Part shown: positions 5,845-27,266 of the stretch, in pieces
Layout of the letters: every line of letters begins with the position of its first letter
How positions within the stretch are numbered: position 1 is the stretch's first letter
IMG/VR virus record: IMGVR_UViG_3300031707_006555
Span: 1 to 27,546 of that record
DNA length: 27,546 bases
Direction: 5' to 3' (one strand)
From: a virus
Program-made: the position numbers and the translations under genes
Notes under the pieces: generated by a model
What the model was told of the DNA's origin: nothing
The model's database searches: none
The model's input: the letters and a program-made list of their open reading frames with translations, nothing else

Positions 5845-6774
5845 ATGAAAAAGGTAGGTTTTATATGTCTGGCAGGACTTGACCAATTTATAGATCCGAT
5901 AATTGAAGGATTGTCAGACAATTATACCACTAGGAAGTTTATGATCAGGAATCAACAAGATATATATAATGCAATTGACTGGGCTGATATTATCTGGCTG
6001 GAATGGTGCAATCAGACGGCCATAATAGGAACGAATTACGAAGGGATCAAAGGTAAAAAAGTTATAATTAGACTTCACAGCTATGAAATATTTACGGATT
6101 TTCCTAAACAGATCAATTGGCTTGTAGTAAATAGACTAATTCTGGTAGCCCCCCATATCAGAGAAATTCTGAAAATATTTATCCCGGACATTGAGGAAAA
6201 AGTTAAAATAGAAATCGTTTCTAATGGGATTGACCTGGATTCTACCCACTGGAAGAAGGTGCAACCCGGATATAACATATCTTGGGTTGGATTCATTAAT
6301 TATAAAAAGAATCCTCAAATGGCTTTACAAATATTAAAGAAATTAGCTGACATTGATAAAAGATATAAATTGCACGTGGCAGGTTCGTTCCAGGATCTAA
6401 GATATAAAATATACCTGGAGTATATGGTCAAGGAAATGGGATTGCAGGATAATGTAAAATTCTACGGCTGGATTGATGATATGGAGAAATTTTGGGAAGA
6501 TAAAAATTACCTGCTTCATACATCGATACATGAAAGTTTTGGGTATGGTATTTTTGAAGCAATGGCGAGGGGAATTAAACCGGTAATCCATAACTTTAGG
6601 GGGGCCAAAGAATTATATCCTAAAAATGTTATTTTTAATACTATTGATGAGGCAACTAATAAAATAATTAGCAAAGATTATAATAGTAATGAATATAGAA
6701 ATTGGATCATAGAAAAAGAGTGGACTCTGGAAAAACAATTAAGACAAATTAAAGATATTATAAAAGAGGATTAA
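5845..6774 (+). CDS. GT-B fold glycosyltransferase (GT4-like)
   Basis: Transfers a sugar from an activated nucleotide donor to an unidentified acceptor in the cytoplasm. The C-terminal half is a typical Glycos_transf_1 domain: ISWVGFINYKKNPQMALQIL opens it, VKFYGWIDD follows, and HESFGYGIFEAMARGIKP supplies the E-x7-E donor-binding motif (E230 and E238). At 309 residues it is shorter than most GT4 enzymes (about 370-400), the loss being in the acceptor-binding N-terminal domain. It is followed after one base by a methyltransferase, and the two look like one cassette placed among head genes. The likely role is to decorate a virion protein or a host surface polymer; the acceptor cannot be read from sequence. 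Confidence 0.88.
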   Translation: MKKVGFICLAGLDQFIDPIIEGLSDNYTTRKFMIRNQQDIYNAIDWADIIWLEWCNQTAIIGTNYEGIKGKKVIIRLHSYEIFTDFPKQINWLVVNRLILVAPHIREILKIFIPDIEEKVKIEIVSNGIDLDSTHWKKVQPGYNISWVGFINYKKNPQMALQILKKLADIDKRYKLHVAGSFQDLRYKIYLEYMVKEMGLQDNVKFYGWIDDMEKFWEDKNYLLHTSIHESFGYGIFEAMARGIKPVIHNFRGAKELYPKNVIFNTIDEATNKIISKDYNSNEYRNWIIEKEWTLEKQLRQIKDIIKED

Positions 6775-6775
6775 A

Positions 6776-7297
6776 ATGCCATCAAGTAGGCCCAATATAA
6801 TCAGTCCGGTAATTGATTTAATAATGAGAATCAATCCGGATTCTATTCTTGACGTAGGTTCTGGTTTTGGAAAATGGGGCTTCCTATTAAGAGAATATCT
6901 TGAAGTCTGGCAAGGGCGGTTATACCCGGAAGAGTGGAAAAAACGAATAGATGCAATAGAAATTTTTAAGGAATATACCAGACTACCCTGGTATGCTGTA
7001 ATTTATAATAATATTTATAATCAAGATATAACTAAAAACGATGGAATATTAGCGAATTATGATTTAGTATTATTCATGGATGTTATCGAACATATAAAAA
7101 AAGAAAAAGGGCTTGAAATGCTCAAAAAAGCCAGGCATTGGATAGTGTCAACTCCCAATTATATTAGCGGACAGGGCACAATGTTTGGCAATATATATGA
7201 AACCCACATAAGCGAATGGTCGCAAAATGATTTTAAAAAAAGTGTAATCATAAATAATAGATGGATAATAGGCTATCAAATTACCTTAAAAGTGTAG
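6776..7297 (+). CDS. class I SAM-dependent methyltransferase
   Basis: Seven-strand Rossmann-fold methyltransferase of 173 residues. Motif I is ILDVGSGFGKWGFL at about 23-36, the S-adenosylmethionine loop. YDLVLFMDVIEHIKKEKG near 97-114 corresponds to motifs II/III with the common D-x-I-E-H ending. STPN near 127 and ETHISEWS near 141-148 resemble the segment after strand 5 in glycan-modifying methyltransferases. The C-terminus is short, so a substrate-lid element may be missing. It starts two bases after the glycosyltransferase stop, with GAGGA as ribosome site, so the two are co-translated. O-methylation of a glycan made by its neighbour is plausible but inferred. Confidence 0.85.
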   Translation: MPSSRPNIISPVIDLIMRINPDSILDVGSGFGKWGFLLREYLEVWQGRLYPEEWKKRIDAIEIFKEYTRLPWYAVIYNNIYNQDITKNDGILANYDLVLFMDVIEHIKKEKGLEMLKKARHWIVSTPNYISGQGTMFGNIYETHISEWSQNDFKKSVIINNRWIIGYQITLKV

Positions 7298-13521: not shown

Positions 13522-14709
13522 ATGGAAAAACCAAAATTATCAATTTGTATGATCGTTAAAAATGAGGAAGCAAATTTACAAAGATGCCTAGATTCTTTTT
13601 TACCTATTATTCAAATGAAAGATGATAAAACACTAAAACTGCTTACCGAATTAATTATAGTAGATACCGGATCTACAGACAGGACGATAAATATTGCTAA
13701 AAAATTTACTGACAAGGTATATAAAAAAGAATTTATCCCCTGGGATTTCAGCAAAGCCCGCAATTATGGGATCGGAAAGGCTATCGGGGATAAAATTATG
13801 TATATGGATGCCGATGAGGAATTGCGTCATGAATGCTTATACTTGTTAGAGGATATAATTCTGAACCCAGAATATAAAGAACCAACGGTATTTGTAAATT
13901 TATATAACTACTATACCCGGGACCTAAAACAATATTCAGAAATGCTGCAGCCCAGAATATTCAAAAATGAGAGTGGTTTCCATTTTGAGCAGGCGGTCCA
14001 TAATAAACCAATTTGCAAGCCCCCCTATCTTTTTGCCCCTCATATAATCTTTAATCATTATGGATATATTTTCCAGGGGGAAAAGGGCGAAAAATTATTA
14101 GATAATAAAATGGCGCGTAGTTTGCCGATGCTCCAAAAAGAGTTTAAAGAACATCCGGATAACCTGCATAATTTAACTCATTTAGTAAAGACATACTATG
14201 TCACCAGAGATTTTGAGAATACGATTCGCCATGGTGAGATATGGATAAAAAAGATGAGAAAGGAAAATTATAATGAGGGCTGGAATGCCTTTCTTGAAGT
14301 TTTTGTTAATCTGGTGGGGTCATATTTAGCTAAAGATGATATAAAAAATGCGGAAAGAATAGAAAGAGAGGCCTGTCATTATTCGAGCAGGATCTCTCAA
14401 ATATATTTGATGTTAGGGAATTATTGGACCAGCAAGGATAATGAAAAGGCAAAAAAATATTTTGATATTGCACTCGATATTTGTAAAACAAAGGGGAGTT
14501 TATATGAACGGTTATTAATTAATAATTCAAAAATTGTGCTTCCTGAAATTCTCAATTGGCTGGCTATTTATGAATTCGAGAAAAAGGACTATGAAAAAGC
14601 AGGGGAATATATGAATTTTGGAATTGGATTGAATAATAATAGGTTACCTATACGTTGGGATATTTTTAATCAAGAGAATGCAAAGAAAAATTTAATTAAG
14701 GTGGAATAA
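13522..14709 (+). CDS. GT2 family glycosyltransferase with helical-repeat C-terminus
   Basis: A 395-residue GT-A-fold enzyme. LSICMIVKNEEANLQRCLDS at 6-25 is the GT2 start, VDTGSTDRT near 47-56 binds the nucleotide, and MYMDADEEL near 93-101 holds the DxD-type metal site. ARNYGIGKAIGDKI precedes the latter as in the family. Residues about 200-390 form TPR-like helical hairpins (for example IYLMLGNYWTSKDNEKAKKY), often used to hold protein acceptors. It is followed after one base by the tape measure gene. The arrangement resembles protein-modifying GT2 enzymes, so glycosylation of a tail protein is a reasonable hypothesis; a lipid-linked or surface acceptor is the alternative. Confidence 0.88.
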   Translation: MEKPKLSICMIVKNEEANLQRCLDSFLPIIQMKDDKTLKLLTELIIVDTGSTDRTINIAKKFTDKVYKKEFIPWDFSKARNYGIGKAIGDKIMYMDADEELRHECLYLLEDIILNPEYKEPTVFVNLYNYYTRDLKQYSEMLQPRIFKNESGFHFEQAVHNKPICKPPYLFAPHIIFNHYGYIFQGEKGEKLLDNKMARSLPMLQKEFKEHPDNLHNLTHLVKTYYVTRDFENTIRHGEIWIKKMRKENYNEGWNAFLEVFVNLVGSYLAKDDIKNAERIEREACHYSSRISQIYLMLGNYWTSKDNEKAKKYFDIALDICKTKGSLYERLLINNSKIVLPEILNWLAIYEFEKKDYEKAGEYMNFGIGLNNNRLPIRWDIFNQENAKKNLIKVE

Positions 14710-19292: not shown

Positions 19293-20549
19293 ATGAAAAG
19301 AATATTATTTTTAATAATTATTTTATTATTATTTTCTGGAATAGCTTTAGGATATGAGCTTGGAGGTGGAAGTGGGACAGATTATCCCGGTGCGATCGAT
19401 ACCGATACGAGCGTTGAAGTGGATTATCCGGATCCTCTTGCTACCACGGCCAGGGCAGCGGTGCCAAATGACACAAATGCGGCAGTTATCGCTATAGAAA
19501 CAGAATTGGGAATTAACCCAAGTGGCACATACGATACAATAAAGGCTCGTTTAGACGCCGGTGATGGACTTTATTATCTTAAGACGGAAATAAATACCCA
19601 GGCAAAGATGGAGGCTATATGGGGCGTATCTCTGGTTAATGATGGGGATTTAGATTTATATTATTTAAAGACTGCTATAGATACCTTACCTGAAATGGAA
19701 GATATCTGGTTATTAGATATTATTACATCAACTGAACTCTCTACTGCTTTGGGTAGTTATTATTTAAAGACAGCAATTGACGCTCAGGCAGAGATGGAAG
19801 AAATATGGGGAATTACCCTTGCTACTGATTCGGAACTTGCTGCTTTGAAGTTTACCGACTTAACCGATACCCCGGCCAATTATACTGGCAGTTCGTTAAA
19901 GTTTGCTAGGGTAAATGTTGGGGAGACTGCCTTAGAATTTGCAGTAGAAGCTGATCCTACTGTAGATACCGATGCAGAAATTAAGGCAATTTTGGTTGAT
20001 GAAATAACTAAAACAGGAGCTTTTACCGCTGGTAAAATAGCTAAAATTAACAATGCTACCGGAATAATCGAGGAAGGCACTAATACCGATACTGATGTGG
20101 CCGACGCAGTAACAAAGAAGCATAGCCAAAATACCGATACACAGCTTGACTTTTATAATGCTTTAGCTTCTGATCATACTTATTCAGGTATTACTGATAG
20201 TCAGCCAGTAGGTGAAAGTGTTGTCTTTGGACAATTACTGTATTTTAATTTTACCGATAAAGAGTGGAAAAAAGCTAAAGCAGATGCTTCGACAACTATG
20301 CCAGGATTAAGAATTGCTCTTGAAGCAAAAGCCGATGGTCAGACTTGTAAGATGTTAGTAATGGGTTATATAAGGGATGACTCTGCTTTTGAGTTTGCAG
20401 GTGCGATGGTTTATGTTTCTGCGGCAACGGCAGGGGCAATGACTTCTACTTGCCCAACTACGATAGGAAACCAGATTCAAAGAACAGGCTATGCCAAGTC
20501 GGCCGATATCCTCTTTTTCTCGCCCTCGATTGACGTTGGAGAATTGTAA
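19293..20549 (+). CDS. fibre-like protein with Sec signal peptide
   Basis: A 418-residue protein. The first 20 residues (two basic residues, then a hydrophobic core ending in GIALG) form a convincing Sec signal peptide, odd for a phage virion component. The rest looks like a tail fibre: AAVIAIETELGINPSGTYDT near 64-83 and TDLTDTPANYTGSSLKFARV near 190-209 are recurrent fibre motifs. Three imperfect repeats begin YYLKT at about 94, 123 and 156 and each contain MExIW. The C-terminal domain (GLRIALEAKADGQTCKMLVM) resembles the beta domain of fibre and decoration proteins. It may be exported to coat the host surface, or be a fibre whose signal is retained. The ribosome site GAGGAG at 19281-19286 supports the start. 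Confidence 0.7.
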   Translation: MKRILFLIIILLLFSGIALGYELGGGSGTDYPGAIDTDTSVEVDYPDPLATTARAAVPNDTNAAVIAIETELGINPSGTYDTIKARLDAGDGLYYLKTEINTQAKMEAIWGVSLVNDGDLDLYYLKTAIDTLPEMEDIWLLDIITSTELSTALGSYYLKTAIDAQAEMEEIWGITLATDSELAALKFTDLTDTPANYTGSSLKFARVNVGETALEFAVEADPTVDTDAEIKAILVDEITKTGAFTAGKIAKINNATGIIEEGTNTDTDVADAVTKKHSQNTDTQLDFYNALASDHTYSGITDSQPVGESVVFGQLLYFNFTDKEWKKAKADASTTMPGLRIALEAKADGQTCKMLVMGYIRDDSAFEFAGAMVYVSAATAGAMTSTCPTTIGNQIQRTGYAKSADILFFSPSIDVGEL

Positions 20550-20607: not shown

Positions 20608-21375
20608 ATGAAAAAATATAAAGATAAAAATTGGTTATTTAATAAATATTGGAATAAAGAATTGAATATCCCTCAGATTGCCGAAATATGTGAGGTAAGT
20701 AATTTGACTATAAGATATTGGATGATAAAATTTAATATCTCAATTCGTTCTGTAGGCGAGGCTAATTCCCTTAAACAAGTGAAAAATCATTGCAAGTTAT
20801 CACGAAAAGCGATCGAATGGATTTCAGGGGAACTTCTTGGTGATGGTAGTTTAAATTGTCGATCTCTTCATTCTGCGAGGTTTAGATATAGTTCAAAACA
20901 TTTTGAATATATACAATATATAGCAAATATATTGAAATCATTTGGAATAGAAGGGGGAGAAATAAAAGAACGATATCACAAAGAACGAAATTATTATAGT
21001 TATTCTCATGCTTCCTATGCTTATGCAGAATTATTTCCTATCTATAAACATTGGTATCCCAACGGCAAAAAGATAGTTCCTAAAGATATTAAATTAACTT
21101 CTTTGACTTGTAGGCAATGGGTAATTGGAGATGGTTGTTTAAGACATGACAAAAGAGGAGGAAGGCCATATATTGTTTTATTTACTTGTGGATTTCTTAT
21201 TTCAGATGTTAAAAGATTAATTAAGAAATTAATAAATTTAGGATTCAAAATAACAAGATTGCCGAGTATAAATAGTATTCGTATTTCTGCTCATTCAACC
21301 AAAGATTTCCTAAATTTTATAGGCAAATGTCCAGTTCAATGCTACCAATATAAATTTGCCACGAAAGGAGAATAA
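20608..21375 (+). CDS. free-standing LAGLIDADG homing endonuclease
   Basis: A 255-residue selfish DNA endonuclease that would cut phage genomes lacking it and spread by repair. The N-terminal part (about 18-50: LNIPQIAEICEVSNLTIRYW) is a helix-turn-helix DNA-binding region. Two LAGLIDADG motifs follow: WISGELLGDGSL at 71-82 with catalytic D79 and LTCRQWVIGDGCL at 166-178 with D175, so a single chain should be active as a pseudo-dimer. It sits between two complete genes rather than in an intron or intein. It has its own promoter, and AAAGGT five bases before the ATG. Confidence 0.88.
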   Translation: MKKYKDKNWLFNKYWNKELNIPQIAEICEVSNLTIRYWMIKFNISIRSVGEANSLKQVKNHCKLSRKAIEWISGELLGDGSLNCRSLHSARFRYSSKHFEYIQYIANILKSFGIEGGEIKERYHKERNYYSYSHASYAYAELFPIYKHWYPNGKKIVPKDIKLTSLTCRQWVIGDGCLRHDKRGGRPYIVLFTCGFLISDVKRLIKKLINLGFKITRLPSINSIRISAHSTKDFLNFIGKCPVQCYQYKFATKGE

Positions 21376-21377
21376 TT

Positions 21378-21953
21378 ATGAAAAAAATATTATTAGTTGT
21401 TTTTCTTATTTTTTTAATATTTCAAATGGTTGTAATGGCCACTGAAATTGATGTAGGTGCAGCTGCAACAAACAGAACCAGTGAAAAGTTTACAGGCACA
21501 TATATGGTTATTGTTAATCCAGCCGATGGAACTGGAAAAATCACCAGTGTAGAAATATATGCTGTAACTGGCTATAACTTGACACTCGTAGAAGTGGCGA
21601 CCTTCTATGTTGTAAGTGGAAATTTTCTTTCTACAAGAGATTGGGAATATATTGGAAATGTAACCGCTGGCTCTAAGCAAACTTTTGTTGTTGACCTTAA
21701 TGTGGTAGCAGGAGACTATATTGGTATATATTTTGCTTCGGGGGGGAAAATAGAAGCAGACTCTACTGGAACTTATATGTCTAAAGCTGGAGATAATATA
21801 CCCTGTACAAATATAGAATTTAGCAGCCCAGTAGCTGGCACAATAAGTTTATATGGGACAGGTGAGACAGTTGCGGTAGGGATTAAATGGAATACTCAAA
21901 CTATCTCTAAATGGGATGAGCAAGTAATTACAAAATTAAACGGACTGCCATAA
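21378..21953 (+). CDS. secreted beta-sandwich protein, possibly receptor or fibre related
   Basis: A 191-residue protein with a clear N-terminal signal peptide (MKK then a 15-residue hydrophobic core, cleavage near A21). The mature part is nearly all beta: TYMVIVNPADGTGKITSVEI near 34-53, VATFYVVSGNFLSTRDWEYI near 66-85, VVAGDYIGIYFASGGKIEAD near 101-120. I recall similar text in structural proteins of environmental phages. It starts two bases after the endonuclease stop, with AAGGAG as ribosome site. With the other signal-bearing gene it brackets the endonuclease. Function is unknown; a secreted or surface-bound carbohydrate-binding protein is an inference. Confidence 0.65.
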   Translation: MKKILLVVFLIFLIFQMVVMATEIDVGAAATNRTSEKFTGTYMVIVNPADGTGKITSVEIYAVTGYNLTLVEVATFYVVSGNFLSTRDWEYIGNVTAGSKQTFVVDLNVVAGDYIGIYFASGGKIEADSTGTYMSKAGDNIPCTNIEFSSPVAGTISLYGTGETVAVGIKWNTQTISKWDEQVITKLNGLP

Positions 21954-24638: not shown

Positions 24639-25139
24639 TTGAAATTATATATAAATATTAAAAAGATGACTTTCGAGGAAGAAGATAATCAAATTATCCA
24701 TGAAATTGTTTTAGAGGTAAATGATAAAGAAATACCTTGCTATGATTATGTAATTTCATTATCTGAAAGTGATAAATTTATCAAAGATACTCTTAAGATT
24801 TTTTATAAGAAGGATAAAGAAGGTCGAGATACAAAAGAAATTGAAAATAAAATCTTTGTAGTCAGAGAACAAAAAACTTGGTGGAGTCTTCCCCTTTATG
24901 AAATTATTGAAAGTAGTATTGAATTTTTCGATTATAAAAAATATAATTATTTTTCCAGAACTGAAAGAAGAGTAATACTGGCACGAAAGATAAATCAATT
25001 ATATAATATCCCTTCTGAATTAAAGACATTAAGAAAGACTTTTAAATATATAATGGATAATTTTAATATTCCTTATCCTGATTTTTTCAAAAAATACAAT
25101 GACAAAATAGAAACGATTATAAATAAAAATCCGAAATAA
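24639..25139 (+). CDS. protein of unknown function (TTG start)
   Basis: A 166-residue, charged, probably soluble alpha/beta protein. The frame opens with TTG at 24639, three bases after the hub stop; the first ATG is at 24666 (a nine-residue shorter product). No strong ribosome site precedes either start, so coupling to the hub gene is likely. The C-terminal half is helical and basic (RTERRVILARKINQLYNI, then LRKTFKYIMDNFNIPYPDFF). No family is recognised. Its position after the hub suggests a tail fibre assembly factor or an accessory morphogenesis protein, without direct support. Confidence 0.55.
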   Translation: MKLYINIKKMTFEEEDNQIIHEIVLEVNDKEIPCYDYVISLSESDKFIKDTLKIFYKKDKEGRDTKEIENKIFVVREQKTWWSLPLYEIIESSIEFFDYKKYNYFSRTERRVILARKINQLYNIPSELKTLRKTFKYIMDNFNIPYPDFFKKYNDKIETIINKNPK

Positions 25140-25167
25140 TTGTAAAATATAGAAAAAGGATTATAAT
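25140..25167 (+). promoter_or_regulatory. promoter of the lipoprotein genes
   Basis: TTGTAA (25140-25145) and a perfect TATAAT (25162-25167) with a 16-base spacer, in the first intergenic space for more than 3 kb. The first twelve bases (TTGTAAAATATA) are identical to the promoter before the capsid module. It gives the lipoproteins transcription independent of the late genes. Confidence 0.65.
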
Positions 25168-25170
25168 ATT

Positions 25171-25183
25171 AATAGTAACTATT
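25171..25183. promoter_or_regulatory. operator-like palindrome at the transcription start
   Basis: AATAGT and ACTATT are exact inverted complements around a central A. The palindrome begins four bases after the -10 box, so it covers the expected start point, where a repressor could block transcription. No second copy was noticed in the window. Confidence 0.4.
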
Positions 25184-25244
25184 CATTGCTTATATCGTAT
25201 TATATATTAGTAGTTTAAAGATAATTTTAGGGGGCATATAAGCA

Positions 25245-25649
25245 ATGAAAAGGAAAATTTTAATATCGTTCTTTATCATACTTTTAATTTTAGCCTTAAC
25301 CGGTTGCGGAATGATCCCTGAAGGTGATCCCGACTGGAATGATGAAAAAGAAATAGAAGAATTAATTAATTATTATTGGGATATGATTTCCGTTGGTGAT
25401 TATGAATTAGCTAAAATTTATTGTATCCCGGATGGGGATGCTTACAATGTAGTTGAGGAATATGAGGATTTAAATTATTCAAATCTAGAGTTCATTGTTA
25501 ACTATAATTGGATTAAAATAATAGAAGATGAAGCTATTGTTAGCATTGATCTTATTATAATTAAATCTAACGAAAGTGAAGTAGTCTGTGACTATATTAT
25601 GTATCTAACTAAAAGTTCTTCAATAACTGTAAATTGGATACTTAAATAA
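25245..25649 (+). CDS. small lipoprotein 1
   Basis: A 134-residue lipoprotein: MKRK, a hydrophobic stretch, then the lipobox LTGC with acylated Cys at 21. The mature part begins acidic (PEGDPDW) and contains YYWDMISVGDYELAKIYCI near 44-62, a pattern of small NTF2-like lipoproteins (DUF4878 style), which is a tentative fold call. It would be anchored on the outside of the host membrane. Phage-encoded lipoproteins at this kind of position are known to block superinfection (for example T5 Llp, TP-J34 Ltp). It has its own promoter and the ribosome site AGGGGG at 25229-25234. Its paralogue follows 55 bases later. Confidence 0.8.
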   Translation: MKRKILISFFIILLILALTGCGMIPEGDPDWNDEKEIEELINYYWDMISVGDYELAKIYCIPDGDAYNVVEEYEDLNYSNLEFIVNYNWIKIIEDEAIVSIDLIIIKSNESEVVCDYIMYLTKSSSITVNWILK

Positions 25650-25701
25650 AGATTTGTAATTTTATTGATTTAAAAAAGAATAATTTAAGGGAGATATATA
25701 A

Positions 25702-26169
25702 ATGATGAAAAGGAAATTTTTAATATCATTCTTGATTATACTTTTAATTTTAGCCTTAACCGGTTGCGGGATGATCGCTCCGGGTTTTCCTAACTGGATG
25801 TTAGCAGAAGATGCAGTTTATAACTACTGGCAGGCGATCATTAACCGGCAATACGAATTAGCTAAATGTTATTGCATAACTGACGGAGTTTGGTATAATA
25901 AGGTTGACGAGTGGGAAGAATATATCAATATTAATTCTGAAGGAGAGGCCTCAGTATTGATTTTTCTCGATAAGTTTTATAAACCGACTGAGGTAATCGG
26001 AGAGGATATTTATGATCCTGATATTAGAAATAATGCTATTGTATATGCAGAAATTATTACTCATAAAAGACCTTTTCCTTGTAGTTATGAAATAGATGTT
26101 GATGTCTTTGAATATGAAACAGAGTTACTTAAGCAAAATTACCCACCTGGAGACTGGGAACTTAAATAA
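25702..26169 (+). CDS. small lipoprotein 2, paralogue of lipoprotein 1
   Basis: A 155-residue lipoprotein (154 if it starts at the second ATG, 25705, as in its paralogue), with LTGC lipobox and acylated Cys at 22. The leader DNA matches that of lipoprotein 1 with five mismatches in 72 bases, while the mature parts share only short blocks such as QYELAKCYCITDG near 51-63. It is longer in the middle (about 70-110) and ends PPGDWELK. The ribosome site AAGGGAGA at 25687-25694 serves either ATG. A tandem duplication with strong divergence of the exposed part suggests selection for variety, as expected for exclusion or receptor-masking proteins. Confidence 0.8.
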   Translation: MMKRKFLISFLIILLILALTGCGMIAPGFPNWMLAEDAVYNYWQAIINRQYELAKCYCITDGVWYNKVDEWEEYININSEGEASVLIFLDKFYKPTEVIGEDIYDPDIRNNAIVYAEIITHKRPFPCSYEIDVDVFEYETELLKQNYPPGDWELK

Positions 26170-26191: not shown

Positions 26192-26214
26192 AGAGCTCCA
26201 TTTTTAGAGAGCCA
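26192..26214 (+). repeat. duplicated leader box, copy 2 (AGAGCTCCA-N5-AGAGAGCCA)
   Basis: Same pair of nine-base elements as at 7761-7782, here with five T bases between them. Again it runs into a terminator stem and again a gene module follows, in this case lysis. The two terminators differ in loop and inner stem, so conservation of the boxes is not just a recent copy of the whole region. Confidence 0.6.
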
Positions 26215-26257
26215 GATTTTAAAAAGGTAAAAAACCTTAATGGATCTGGCTTTTTTT
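26208..26257 (+). terminator. rho-independent terminator before lysis genes
   Basis: AGCCAGAT (26210-26217) pairs with ATCTGGCT (26244-26251), with an inner AAGG/CCTT stem (26224-26227 with 26235-26238) and a run of seven T at 26251-26257. It ends lipoprotein transcription and separates it from the lysis genes, which must be reached by read-through or antitermination. Confidence 0.85.
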
Positions 26258-26294: not shown

Positions 26295-26480
26295 CTGGAG
26301 GGTTTAGCTAAAAAGATTGAGCAAATAATTAATCAATTTGCGACTGAAGAATTGGGTAATCGACTTAGCCAATTCGCTATGATTTCCTTTAAAGATATGA
26401 TTCTGAAAGAAATAAAATCTTATAAACCAATTGTAAATGAAACAGCTAAGGAAGTTAAGAAGGAGAAGGAGATGATGTAA
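26295..26480 (+). CDS. small pre-holin protein with non-ATG start
   Basis: The frame runs to TAA at 26478-26480 and encodes about 61 residues: an amphipathic N-terminal helix (GLAKKIEQIINQFATEELGN), a short middle (RLSQFAMISFKDMILKEI) and a Lys/Glu-rich tail. There is no ATG at the N-terminus. AAGGGGGA (26279-26286) lies eight bases before CTG at 26295 and five before ATT at 26292, so one of these rare starts is probably used. The stop overlaps the ATG of the holin-like gene (TAATG). Function is unknown; a small lysis-cassette protein is suggested by place. Confidence 0.6.
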   Translation: MEGLAKKIEQIINQFATEELGNRLSQFAMISFKDMILKEIKSYKPIVNETAKEVKKEKEMM

Positions 26481-26797
26481 TGATTGCAGCATTAATAGAA
26501 AACTATAAAGAGTTAACAGTAGTGGGTGTATTCGCTATAATAATGTCCTGGTATCTATGGCACCAGACAAAACAACAGTCAAAGCGTGAGGATAAGCGAG
26601 ATAAACAGCAAGACGAGGATAGGTTATTTCATCGAAACTTAATAACAAACGATTTAAAAAGTTTACATGATGACAATACTAAAAATACTGACTTAAATAA
26701 CCAGAGCATAATATTACTCAAGGACATAGGTGAGAACCAGACAAAATTATGTACTTTAATAGAGGGTGTCGATAGGAAAATAAATGGACGGAAATAA
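26480..26797 (+). CDS. holin-like membrane protein
   Basis: A 105-residue protein with one membrane segment near residues 12-28 (LTVVGVFAIIMSWYLWH), followed by a strongly charged stretch (QSKREDKRDKQQDEDR) and a helical C-terminal tail likely to form a coiled coil. This topology is shared by single-span holins and holin-accessory proteins such as the XhlA type. It lies immediately before and overlaps the endolysin gene by 14 bases, so a role in releasing or triggering the endolysin is likely. Whether it forms the hole itself cannot be decided from sequence. Confidence 0.7.
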   Translation: MIAALIENYKELTVVGVFAIIMSWYLWHQTKQQSKREDKRDKQQDEDRLFHRNLITNDLKSLHDDNTKNTDLNNQSIILLKDIGENQTKLCTLIEGVDRKINGRK

Positions 26798-27266
26798 AAA
26801 ATCTTTAGGTGACTTATCTACCAACTTCTGGTCCAAAGAGTTCCGCTGCCCCTGTCAAAAATGCAGAAGGAAAAAAGTTAGAGTAAGCAGTCTATTACTT
26901 TTTAAATTAGAAATGGTAAAGATGGCTTTTGACGGTAAACCGGTCATTGTATTAAGTGGAAACCGTTGCCTTGAAGAAAATAAAAGGGTAGGTGGCTATC
27001 CTGATTCTGAACATATACCTAATCCGGATGGGGAAGCTGCCGATATAAAAATAAAAGGGATAAAGCCTATCGATATAGGATTGGCTGCTGAAAAAATAGG
27101 CGGTATGAGAATAGGGATAGCCAAAACTTATTGCCACTTGGATATAAAACCTCCAAGTCCGAGCAAGTTCTGGATCTATATAGGGAAGAAAATTATTTAT
27201 TCCGGGTCCATAGAGAACAATGATCTGTTAAAGTTCTATCAAATTTTAACAGGGAAGAATATTTGA
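26784..27266 (+). CDS. endolysin, M15 family D-Ala-D-Ala peptidase
   Basis: A 160-residue zinc peptidase that cuts peptide cross-links of peptidoglycan at the end of infection. Family features in order: LSTNFWSKEFRCPC at 11-24, the usual opening; SGNRC at 58-62; SEH at 75-77 with zinc ligand H77; AAD at 85-87 with D87; and CHLDIKP at 117-123 with H118 and catalytic-type D120. Compared with the common S-x-H-x-x-G-x-A-x-D spacing, three extra residues stand between H77 and the Gly. The Cys cluster at 22, 24 and 27 may stabilise the N-terminus. There is no signal peptide or wall-binding domain, so it depends on a holin. Confidence 0.88.
   Translation: MDGNKKSLGDLSTNFWSKEFRCPCQKCRRKKVRVSSLLLFKLEMVKMAFDGKPVIVLSGNRCLEENKRVGGYPDSEHIPNPDGEAADIKIKGIKPIDIGLAAEKIGGMRIGIAKTYCHLDIKPPSPSKFWIYIGKKIIYSGSIENNDLLKFYQILTGKNI

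What the first reader, a model, noticed from the sequence alone, without database searches (positions are those of the whole stretch)
25140..26169. Independently regulated tandem lipoproteins with conserved leaders and diverged mature parts
A good promoter, a 6-1-6 palindrome at its start point and a terminator isolate this pair from the late operon. The leader DNA differs at five of 72 bases while the exposed parts are far apart. This is the layout expected of superinfection-exclusion or host-altering genes expressed in a lysogen, with fast diversification.
Basis: partly seen in the sequence, partly recalled or inferred. Interest (0 to 1): 0.55.

Follow-up and report, generated by a model that had tools for sequence, protein, structure and literature searches.

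The report
Mobile phage cassette of surface lipoproteins
A bacterial virus carries a small self-contained gene block, with its own start and stop signals, for proteins that should sit on the surface of the infected cell; related viruses carry one to five such genes and have shuffled their front and back halves, as expected of genes that protect or alter the host cell.

Summary
Two lipoprotein genes (25245-25649; 25702-26169) lie between tail and lysis genes, and their leader DNA differs at 5 of 72 bases. Comparison with relatives changes the meaning. The promoter and 5' UTR (25140-25244) and the terminator (26206-26255) are conserved across related phage records whose upstream neighbours differ, so this is a moron-type cassette; arrays hold 1-5 genes of three lipoprotein types. 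The 6-1-6 palindrome is not conserved and is near chance. Both mature parts are divergent members of one family with a confidently predicted NTF2-like fold, matching no Pfam, NCBIfam or PHROG family above cut-off. The similar leaders are not simple conservation: leaders and mature parts have reassorted. The first gene's mature part is 94% identical in DNA to that of another phage, whose leader is only 83% identical. No gene-wide positive selection is seen (median dN/dS 0.40). Export to the host envelope is well supported. Superinfection exclusion is the likeliest role by precedent (about 0.45), untested. Expression in a lysogen is not shown. New variant of a known kind; moderate interest.

The parts
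25140..25167 (+). promoter of the cassette, TTGTAA (25140-25145), 16-bp spacer, TATAAT (25162-25167); relatives mostly have a 17-bp spacer
   Evidence: 10 of 12 consensus matches; TATAAT kept in 10 of 12 distinct array starts
25171..25183 (.).
   Evidence: not present in relatives
25184..25244 (+). conserved 5' untranslated block; core TTATATCGTATTATATA (25190-25206) is identical in all 12 distinct aligned starts (10 of 10 not selected by that pattern)
25182..25249 (+). possible RNA hairpin, arms 25182-25195 and 25236-25249, start codon inside the stem and AGGGGG ribosome site in the loop
   Evidence: searches (window z -3.56; the other seven -2.1 to +0.3; 99% cells paired, only one-sided changes): suggestive, not proven
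25245..25649 (+). lipoprotein A, 134 aa, NTF2-like mature domain
25702..26169 (+). lipoprotein B, 155 aa (ATG at 25702 or 25705), NTF2-like mature domain
26206..26255 (+). intrinsic terminator closing the cassette; sequence kept in most relatives
   Evidence: compared by eye
24639..25139 (+). gene directly upstream (166 aa, unknown); its stop codon ends right before the -35 box
26480..27266 (+). downstream lysis genes: holin-like ORF (weak match) and M15 peptidase endolysin

Best explanation
This is a moron-type cassette of a tailed phage: own promoter, conserved 5' UTR, an array of 1-5 lipoprotein genes, terminator. Each lipoprotein is expected to be exported, lipidated at the lipobox cysteine and anchored in the envelope of the infected or lysogenised cell, with an NTF2-like domain facing out of the membrane. 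The cassette moves between phages as a unit. Within it, the promoter/UTR/signal-peptide DNA is common to many copies and acts, passively or otherwise, as the place where recombination joins new mature parts to an existing expression start, so phages differ in copy number and in mature domains. The most likely job is to change the host surface or membrane so that related phages cannot adsorb or inject (superinfection exclusion); each mature part would answer to a different receptor or invader. Shown by sequence: cassette structure, homology of A and B, copy-number variation, leader/mature reassortment, predicted fold. Inferred: lipidation, expression timing, membrane location, exclusion.
For: Conserved start block in front of arrays with different upstream genes: the 166-aa gene (window, L015), the 21972-type tail gene (L016), an unrelated 920-942-aa tail gene (L014, L018-L022, L060), a 21378-type exported protein (L023) and a different short gene (L013). 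A scan for the UTR core returned 11 viral records; 9 were known arrays, one more (L060) is followed by a type-C lipoprotein and one (L057) ends before the gene. Terminator z -5.9 to -7.0 in all 5 arrays folded, window included. Arrays of 1-5 genes. Reassortment: W_A informative sites 10:3 for W_B in the leader but 9:136 for L018_A in the mature part, p 1e-8; W_A/W_B synonymous differences about 2 of 13 in the leader against 39 of 61 in the mature part, p 0.002; nearest leader partner equals nearest mature partner in 2 of 19 genes against 5-14 in 33 control windows of the mature part. Fold: pLDDT 84.2 and 84.1, NTF2-like chains at Z 9.7-12.6 over 92-123 residues in the rows listed. Precedents for exclusion lipoproteins beside tail/receptor-binding genes: T5 Llp, mEpimmI Lpp; Rtp45 as mechanism.
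Against: No expression, lipidation or exclusion data. Known exclusion lipoproteins read about here are small (Rtp45 about 6 kDa) or repeat proteins (Ltp), not NTF2-like domains. Lipoprotein similarity does not clearly track the fibre-like gene across 8 phages (Mantel r 0.28, p 0.10). No gene-wide positive selection. The leader is short, so nearest-partner tests on it are noisy, and pairs of genes are not independent. Temperate lifestyle of the window phage is unproven. L017 carries a single copy without the start block, in another operon.
Confidence: 0.5

Rival explanations
1. Lysogenic-conversion (host fitness) cassette: the lipoproteins bind small molecules or wall parts and help the lysogen, like lambda bor/lom, without excluding phages.
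For: NTF2-like folds often form ligand pockets (recalled); structural neighbours include ketosteroid-isomerase-like proteins and the N-terminal domain of PBP5. Relatives carry further exported proteins and lipoproteins. Lambda bor and lom are expressed in lysogens (PMC7067206, passages). A decayed phage remnant next to miaA keeps an intact B gene (L013).
Against: No ligand or catalytic residues tested; copy-number and mature-part variation are more readily explained by conflict; lysogeny not shown for the window.
Confidence: 0.3
2. Late, lysis-linked envelope proteins: the genes are read mainly with the tail and lysis genes and help weaken the envelope or stop released phages binding debris.
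For: Same strand, no terminator found upstream, next to lysis genes; in most relatives also near the lysis genes.
Against: Dedicated conserved promoter and terminator; the L017 copy lies in an operon next to recombinase and terminase genes.
Confidence: 0.15
3. The leaders are alike only because the signal peptide is under purifying selection; no recombination is involved.
For: Leaders are the more conserved part overall (mean 78% DNA identity against about 51-72% along the mature part).
Against: Synonymous sites are also alike in the W_A/W_B leader; W_A leader and mature part have different nearest partners, with a sharp switch of informative sites; the leader agrees with the mature part less often than any of 33 mature windows.
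Confidence: 0.1
4. The 5' UTR hairpin controls translation (start codon sequestered until a signal or a shorter transcript frees it), so the cassette is regulated mainly after transcription. This can hold together with the main explanation.
For: 14-pair stem over AUG in the window, z -3.56; helix pairs kept in 99% of cells with one-sided wobble-type changes at 5 pairs and one broken cell.
Against: No compensatory changes; z between -2.1 and +0.3 in the other seven sequences folded, and L021 folds otherwise; the structure was taken from one of the sequences; the invariant core could equally be a DNA operator.
Confidence: 0.3

Closest known systems
T5 Llp, T1-like Cor and Rtp45 exclusion lipoproteins
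   Same: phage lipoproteins that act on the envelope; Llp gene is adjacent to and downstream of the receptor-binding gene pb5 (PMC9586334, passages; Rtp45, PMC12685063, passages)
   Different: those are small single lipoproteins; here larger NTF2-like domains in arrays with a shared start block; no exclusion shown here
mEpimmI Lpp exclusion lipoproteins
   Same: several sequence types of lipoprotein in the structural gene cluster, tested to exclude phages (PMC11893012, passages)
   Different: no sequence comparison made here; no report in the passages of tandem arrays or leader exchange
Ltp of Streptococcus thermophilus phage TP-J34
   Same: lipid-anchored phage lipoprotein that blocks DNA injection, transcribed in the prophage (PMC3952083, passages)
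   Different: Ltp lies in the lysogeny module and has a repeat domain; this pair lies between tail and lysis genes and has an NTF2-like domain
lambda bor/lom morons
   Same: accessory envelope genes expressed by the prophage (PMC7067206, passages)
   Different: no homology tested; position near lysis genes is recalled, not from a call
NTF2-like superfamily (ketosteroid-isomerase-like, PBP5 N-terminal domain, TraM)
   Same: predicted fold of both mature parts
   Different: 3-18% identity in the listed alignments; no shared function implied

Membership tests
phage moron (accessory cassette) | own promoter | tested here: met
   conserved sigma-70-like start: TATAAT in 10 and TACAAT in 1 of 12 distinct array starts; activity not measured
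phage moron (accessory cassette) | own terminator | tested here: met
   z -6.4 in the window, -5.9 to -7.0 in 4 relatives
phage moron (accessory cassette) | inserted at different places between phage genes | tested here: met
   several unrelated upstream neighbours
phage moron (accessory cassette) | expressed while other phage genes are off | not testable with these tools
   no RNA data; PF00589 recombinase in 2 of 13 records, none in the window
superinfection-exclusion lipoprotein | signal peptide with lipobox | tested here: met
   LTGC in both proteins; cysteine invariant in 19 aligned members; lipidation itself not tested
superinfection-exclusion lipoprotein | blocks adsorption or DNA entry of related phages | not testable with these tools
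   needs expression and phage challenge
superinfection-exclusion lipoprotein | type follows the receptor-binding gene | tested here: inconclusive
   fibre-like gene against lipoprotein similarity, 8 phages, r 0.28, p 0.10; the true receptor-binding gene is unknown
NTF2-like fold | helices packed on a curved beta sheet, alpha-alpha-alpha-beta order | tested here: met
   predicted models, NTF2-like chains at Z up to 11.3 (B) and 12.6 (A)
any Pfam, NCBIfam or PHROG protein family | match above curated cut-off or E below 0.001 to the mature part | tested here: not met
   best mature-part matches E 0.03 or worse; the NCBIfam LptM model matches only the signal peptide, below cut-off
Ltp-type exclusion lipoprotein | gene in the lysogeny module | tested here: not met
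   window genes lie between tail and lysis genes

The most novel reading that the evidence does not exclude
The promoter, UTR and signal-peptide DNA form an evolved recombination socket: co-infecting phages swap mature surface domains behind a fixed expression start, a shared pool of host-surface proteins analogous to the expression-site and silent-cassette systems of antigenic variation, but run between phages.
Probability: 0.25. Interest if true: 0.68.

Novelty: new variant of a known kind. Interest (0 to 1): 0.45.

Why it matters
If right, this is an unnamed family of phage lipoproteins with an NTF2-like domain, in phages whose host is not known, and a clear natural case of leader-anchored reassortment of surface genes. 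It gives a ready set of mature domains (19 aligned here) to test which phage each one excludes, and so whether exclusion specificity is exchanged like tail fibres are.

Tried and rejected
Palindrome as operator: rejected, not conserved and near chance. Rfam: nothing above gathering score, three weak chance-like matches. Known phages: no tblastn match of B in 50,697 records at E 1; Marinitoga camini virus 1 and Thermoanaerobacterium phage THSA-485A, related by terminase (56% and 41%), were read for context and list no annotated lipoprotein in the tables seen. BFVD fold search: no match at E 0.001. Host: the only genome-collection hit (L013) lies in a MAG called Bacteroidales; its miaA is 38% identical to the miaA on that bin's contig C1 and at most 45% to those of 40 other genomes drawn from the same phylum, so the contig is probably mis-binned; 24 of 30 window ORF starts listed (25702 and 25705 both counted) have a Shine-Dalgarno-like match, which also speaks against Bacteroidota (recalled). 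Host stays unknown. Positive selection: not seen gene-wide. Fibre-lipoprotein co-variation: inconclusive. RNA stem: not proven. Serine integrase PF07508: 0 of 13 records. tRNAs: none in 8 loci. A claim that nothing is in print rests only on paper searches. Of the papers named, I read passages only: PMC3952083, PMC8092301 (not used), PMC11893012, PMC12685063, PMC9586334, PMC7067206; others I saw only in search listings.

Rows dropped: L019 is a near copy of L018 and was left out of the family set and of the profile. L057 and L060 were found by the UTR pattern itself and were left out of the conservation profile. Type-C lipoproteins and short weak matches in records G003, G004 and G011 were not in the 19-gene set.

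Full report
What was checked. The window is a 27,546-base virus record from IMG/VR, holding terminase, head, tail and lysis genes. The two ORFs of the finding are there: A at 25245-25649 (134 aa) and B at 25702-26169 (155 aa), each with a signal peptide and lipobox LTGC. Their leaders differ at 5 of 72 bases. The promoter is a fair consensus match but such matches are as frequent as in shuffles. The terminator is strong. The palindrome is real, but 17 of the same kind occur in the window and about one in nine shuffles of the stretch has one.

Relatives. Protein searches of viral contigs and of genome contigs and a DNA-pattern scan for the UTR core gave 14 records with the cassette or its start, the window included; G006 and G007 (L018, L019) are near copies of each other, so 13 are distinct. 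Twelve of the 13 carry the start block; L017 does not. All 12 records searched with the family profile matched; the two extra records found by the pattern did not, one because it ends in a type-C gene and one because it ends before the gene. Arrays hold one gene (L014, L017, L022), two (window, L016, L020, L021, L023, and L013 whose first gene has lost its start codon), three (L015) or five (L018/L019). Three types occur: A, B and an unrelated-looking type C.

The start block. Aligned, the 12 distinct starts share a TATAAT box (10 of 12; TACAAT in L023; no counterpart in L013) and a UTR whose core TTATATCGTATTATATA is identical in all 12, 10 of which were not selected by that pattern. Identity upstream of the -10 region falls to 0.4-0.6. 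The gene in front differs: a 166-aa gene in the window and L015, a homologue of the 21972 tail gene in L016, an unrelated 920-942-aa tail gene in L014, L018-L022 and L060, an exported 21378-type protein in L023, and another short gene in L013. The cassette therefore behaves as a unit. In the window the UTR can fold into a stem that contains the start codon (z -3.56), but other members fold less convincingly and the pair counts show wobble-type, never compensatory, changes, so RNA control remains a possibility only.

The proteins. The mature parts of A and B are homologous (58% identity over residues 1-79, leader included; 46% in the alignment). Models of B and A have mean pLDDT 84.2 and 84.1 and the same helix-helix-helix-sheet order; second-look alignment gives NTF2-like chains with Z up to 11.3 and 12.6. 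No Pfam, NCBIfam or PHROG family covers the mature parts.

Leader and mature parts have parted company. Over 171 pairs of 19 genes, leader and mature DNA identity correlate at only 0.26. A is 94.4% identical to L018_A in the mature part but 82.5% in the leader, while its leader is 93.7% identical to that of B and 95.2% to that of L013_B. Informative sites switch from 10:3 in favour of B to 9:136 in favour of L018_A. L022_B shows the same with other partners: 11:3 in the leader and 10:93 in the mature part. The leader's nearest partner agrees with that of the mature part in 2 of 19 genes; 24-codon windows of the mature part agree in 5-14 genes, 33 windows. Synonymous divergence of A against B is 0.17 in the leader and 1.43 in the mature part. 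Purifying selection on the signal peptide alone does not explain this. Mature dN/dS is 0.14-0.60, median 0.40, in 66 pairs with dS below 0.8, so gene-wide positive selection is not seen; single sites were not tested.

Meaning. A phage that spends its own promoter on exported lipoproteins next to tail and lysis genes, and whose relatives vary their number and mature parts, most resembles phages with exclusion lipoproteins (T5 Llp beside pb5; Rtp45; mEpimmI Lpp types in the structural cluster, shown to exclude phages). Membership in that functional class is untested. A host-fitness role is the main rival. The phage's lifestyle and host are unknown: tyrosine recombinases occur in 2 of 13 records, which may be fragments, and L013 shows a cassette beside a bacterial miaA gene in a probably mis-binned contig.

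Noticed in passing
window 19293-20549 and 21378-21953: Two further genes amid the tail genes begin with signal-peptide or membrane-anchor sequences, as do their homologues in seven relatives; exported proteins among tail genes are odd.
   Followed up: partly
L015:8776-9381, L016:8564-9151, L023:8575-9618 and 13661-14191, L068:13366-13989: Relatives carry more lipoproteins with a transglutaminase-like GDCNDFST-type motif (resemblance recalled), several directly after the cassette terminator.
   Followed up: no
L013:1-2200: Decayed phage remnant beside a bacterial miaA; the UTR block joins another phage gene at a short stretch of similarity, and the first lipoprotein gene has lost its start codon.
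   Followed up: partly
L017:1295-3180: A single B-type gene without the promoter block sits in another operon, between recombinase and terminase genes.
   Followed up: partly
window 20608-21375: LAGLIDADG homing-endonuclease-like ORF between the two exported-protein genes.
   Followed up: no
window 5845-7297 and 13522-14709: Glycosyltransferase (13522-14709) and, by eye, glycosyltransferase- and methyltransferase-like ORFs within the head and tail genes.
   Followed up: no
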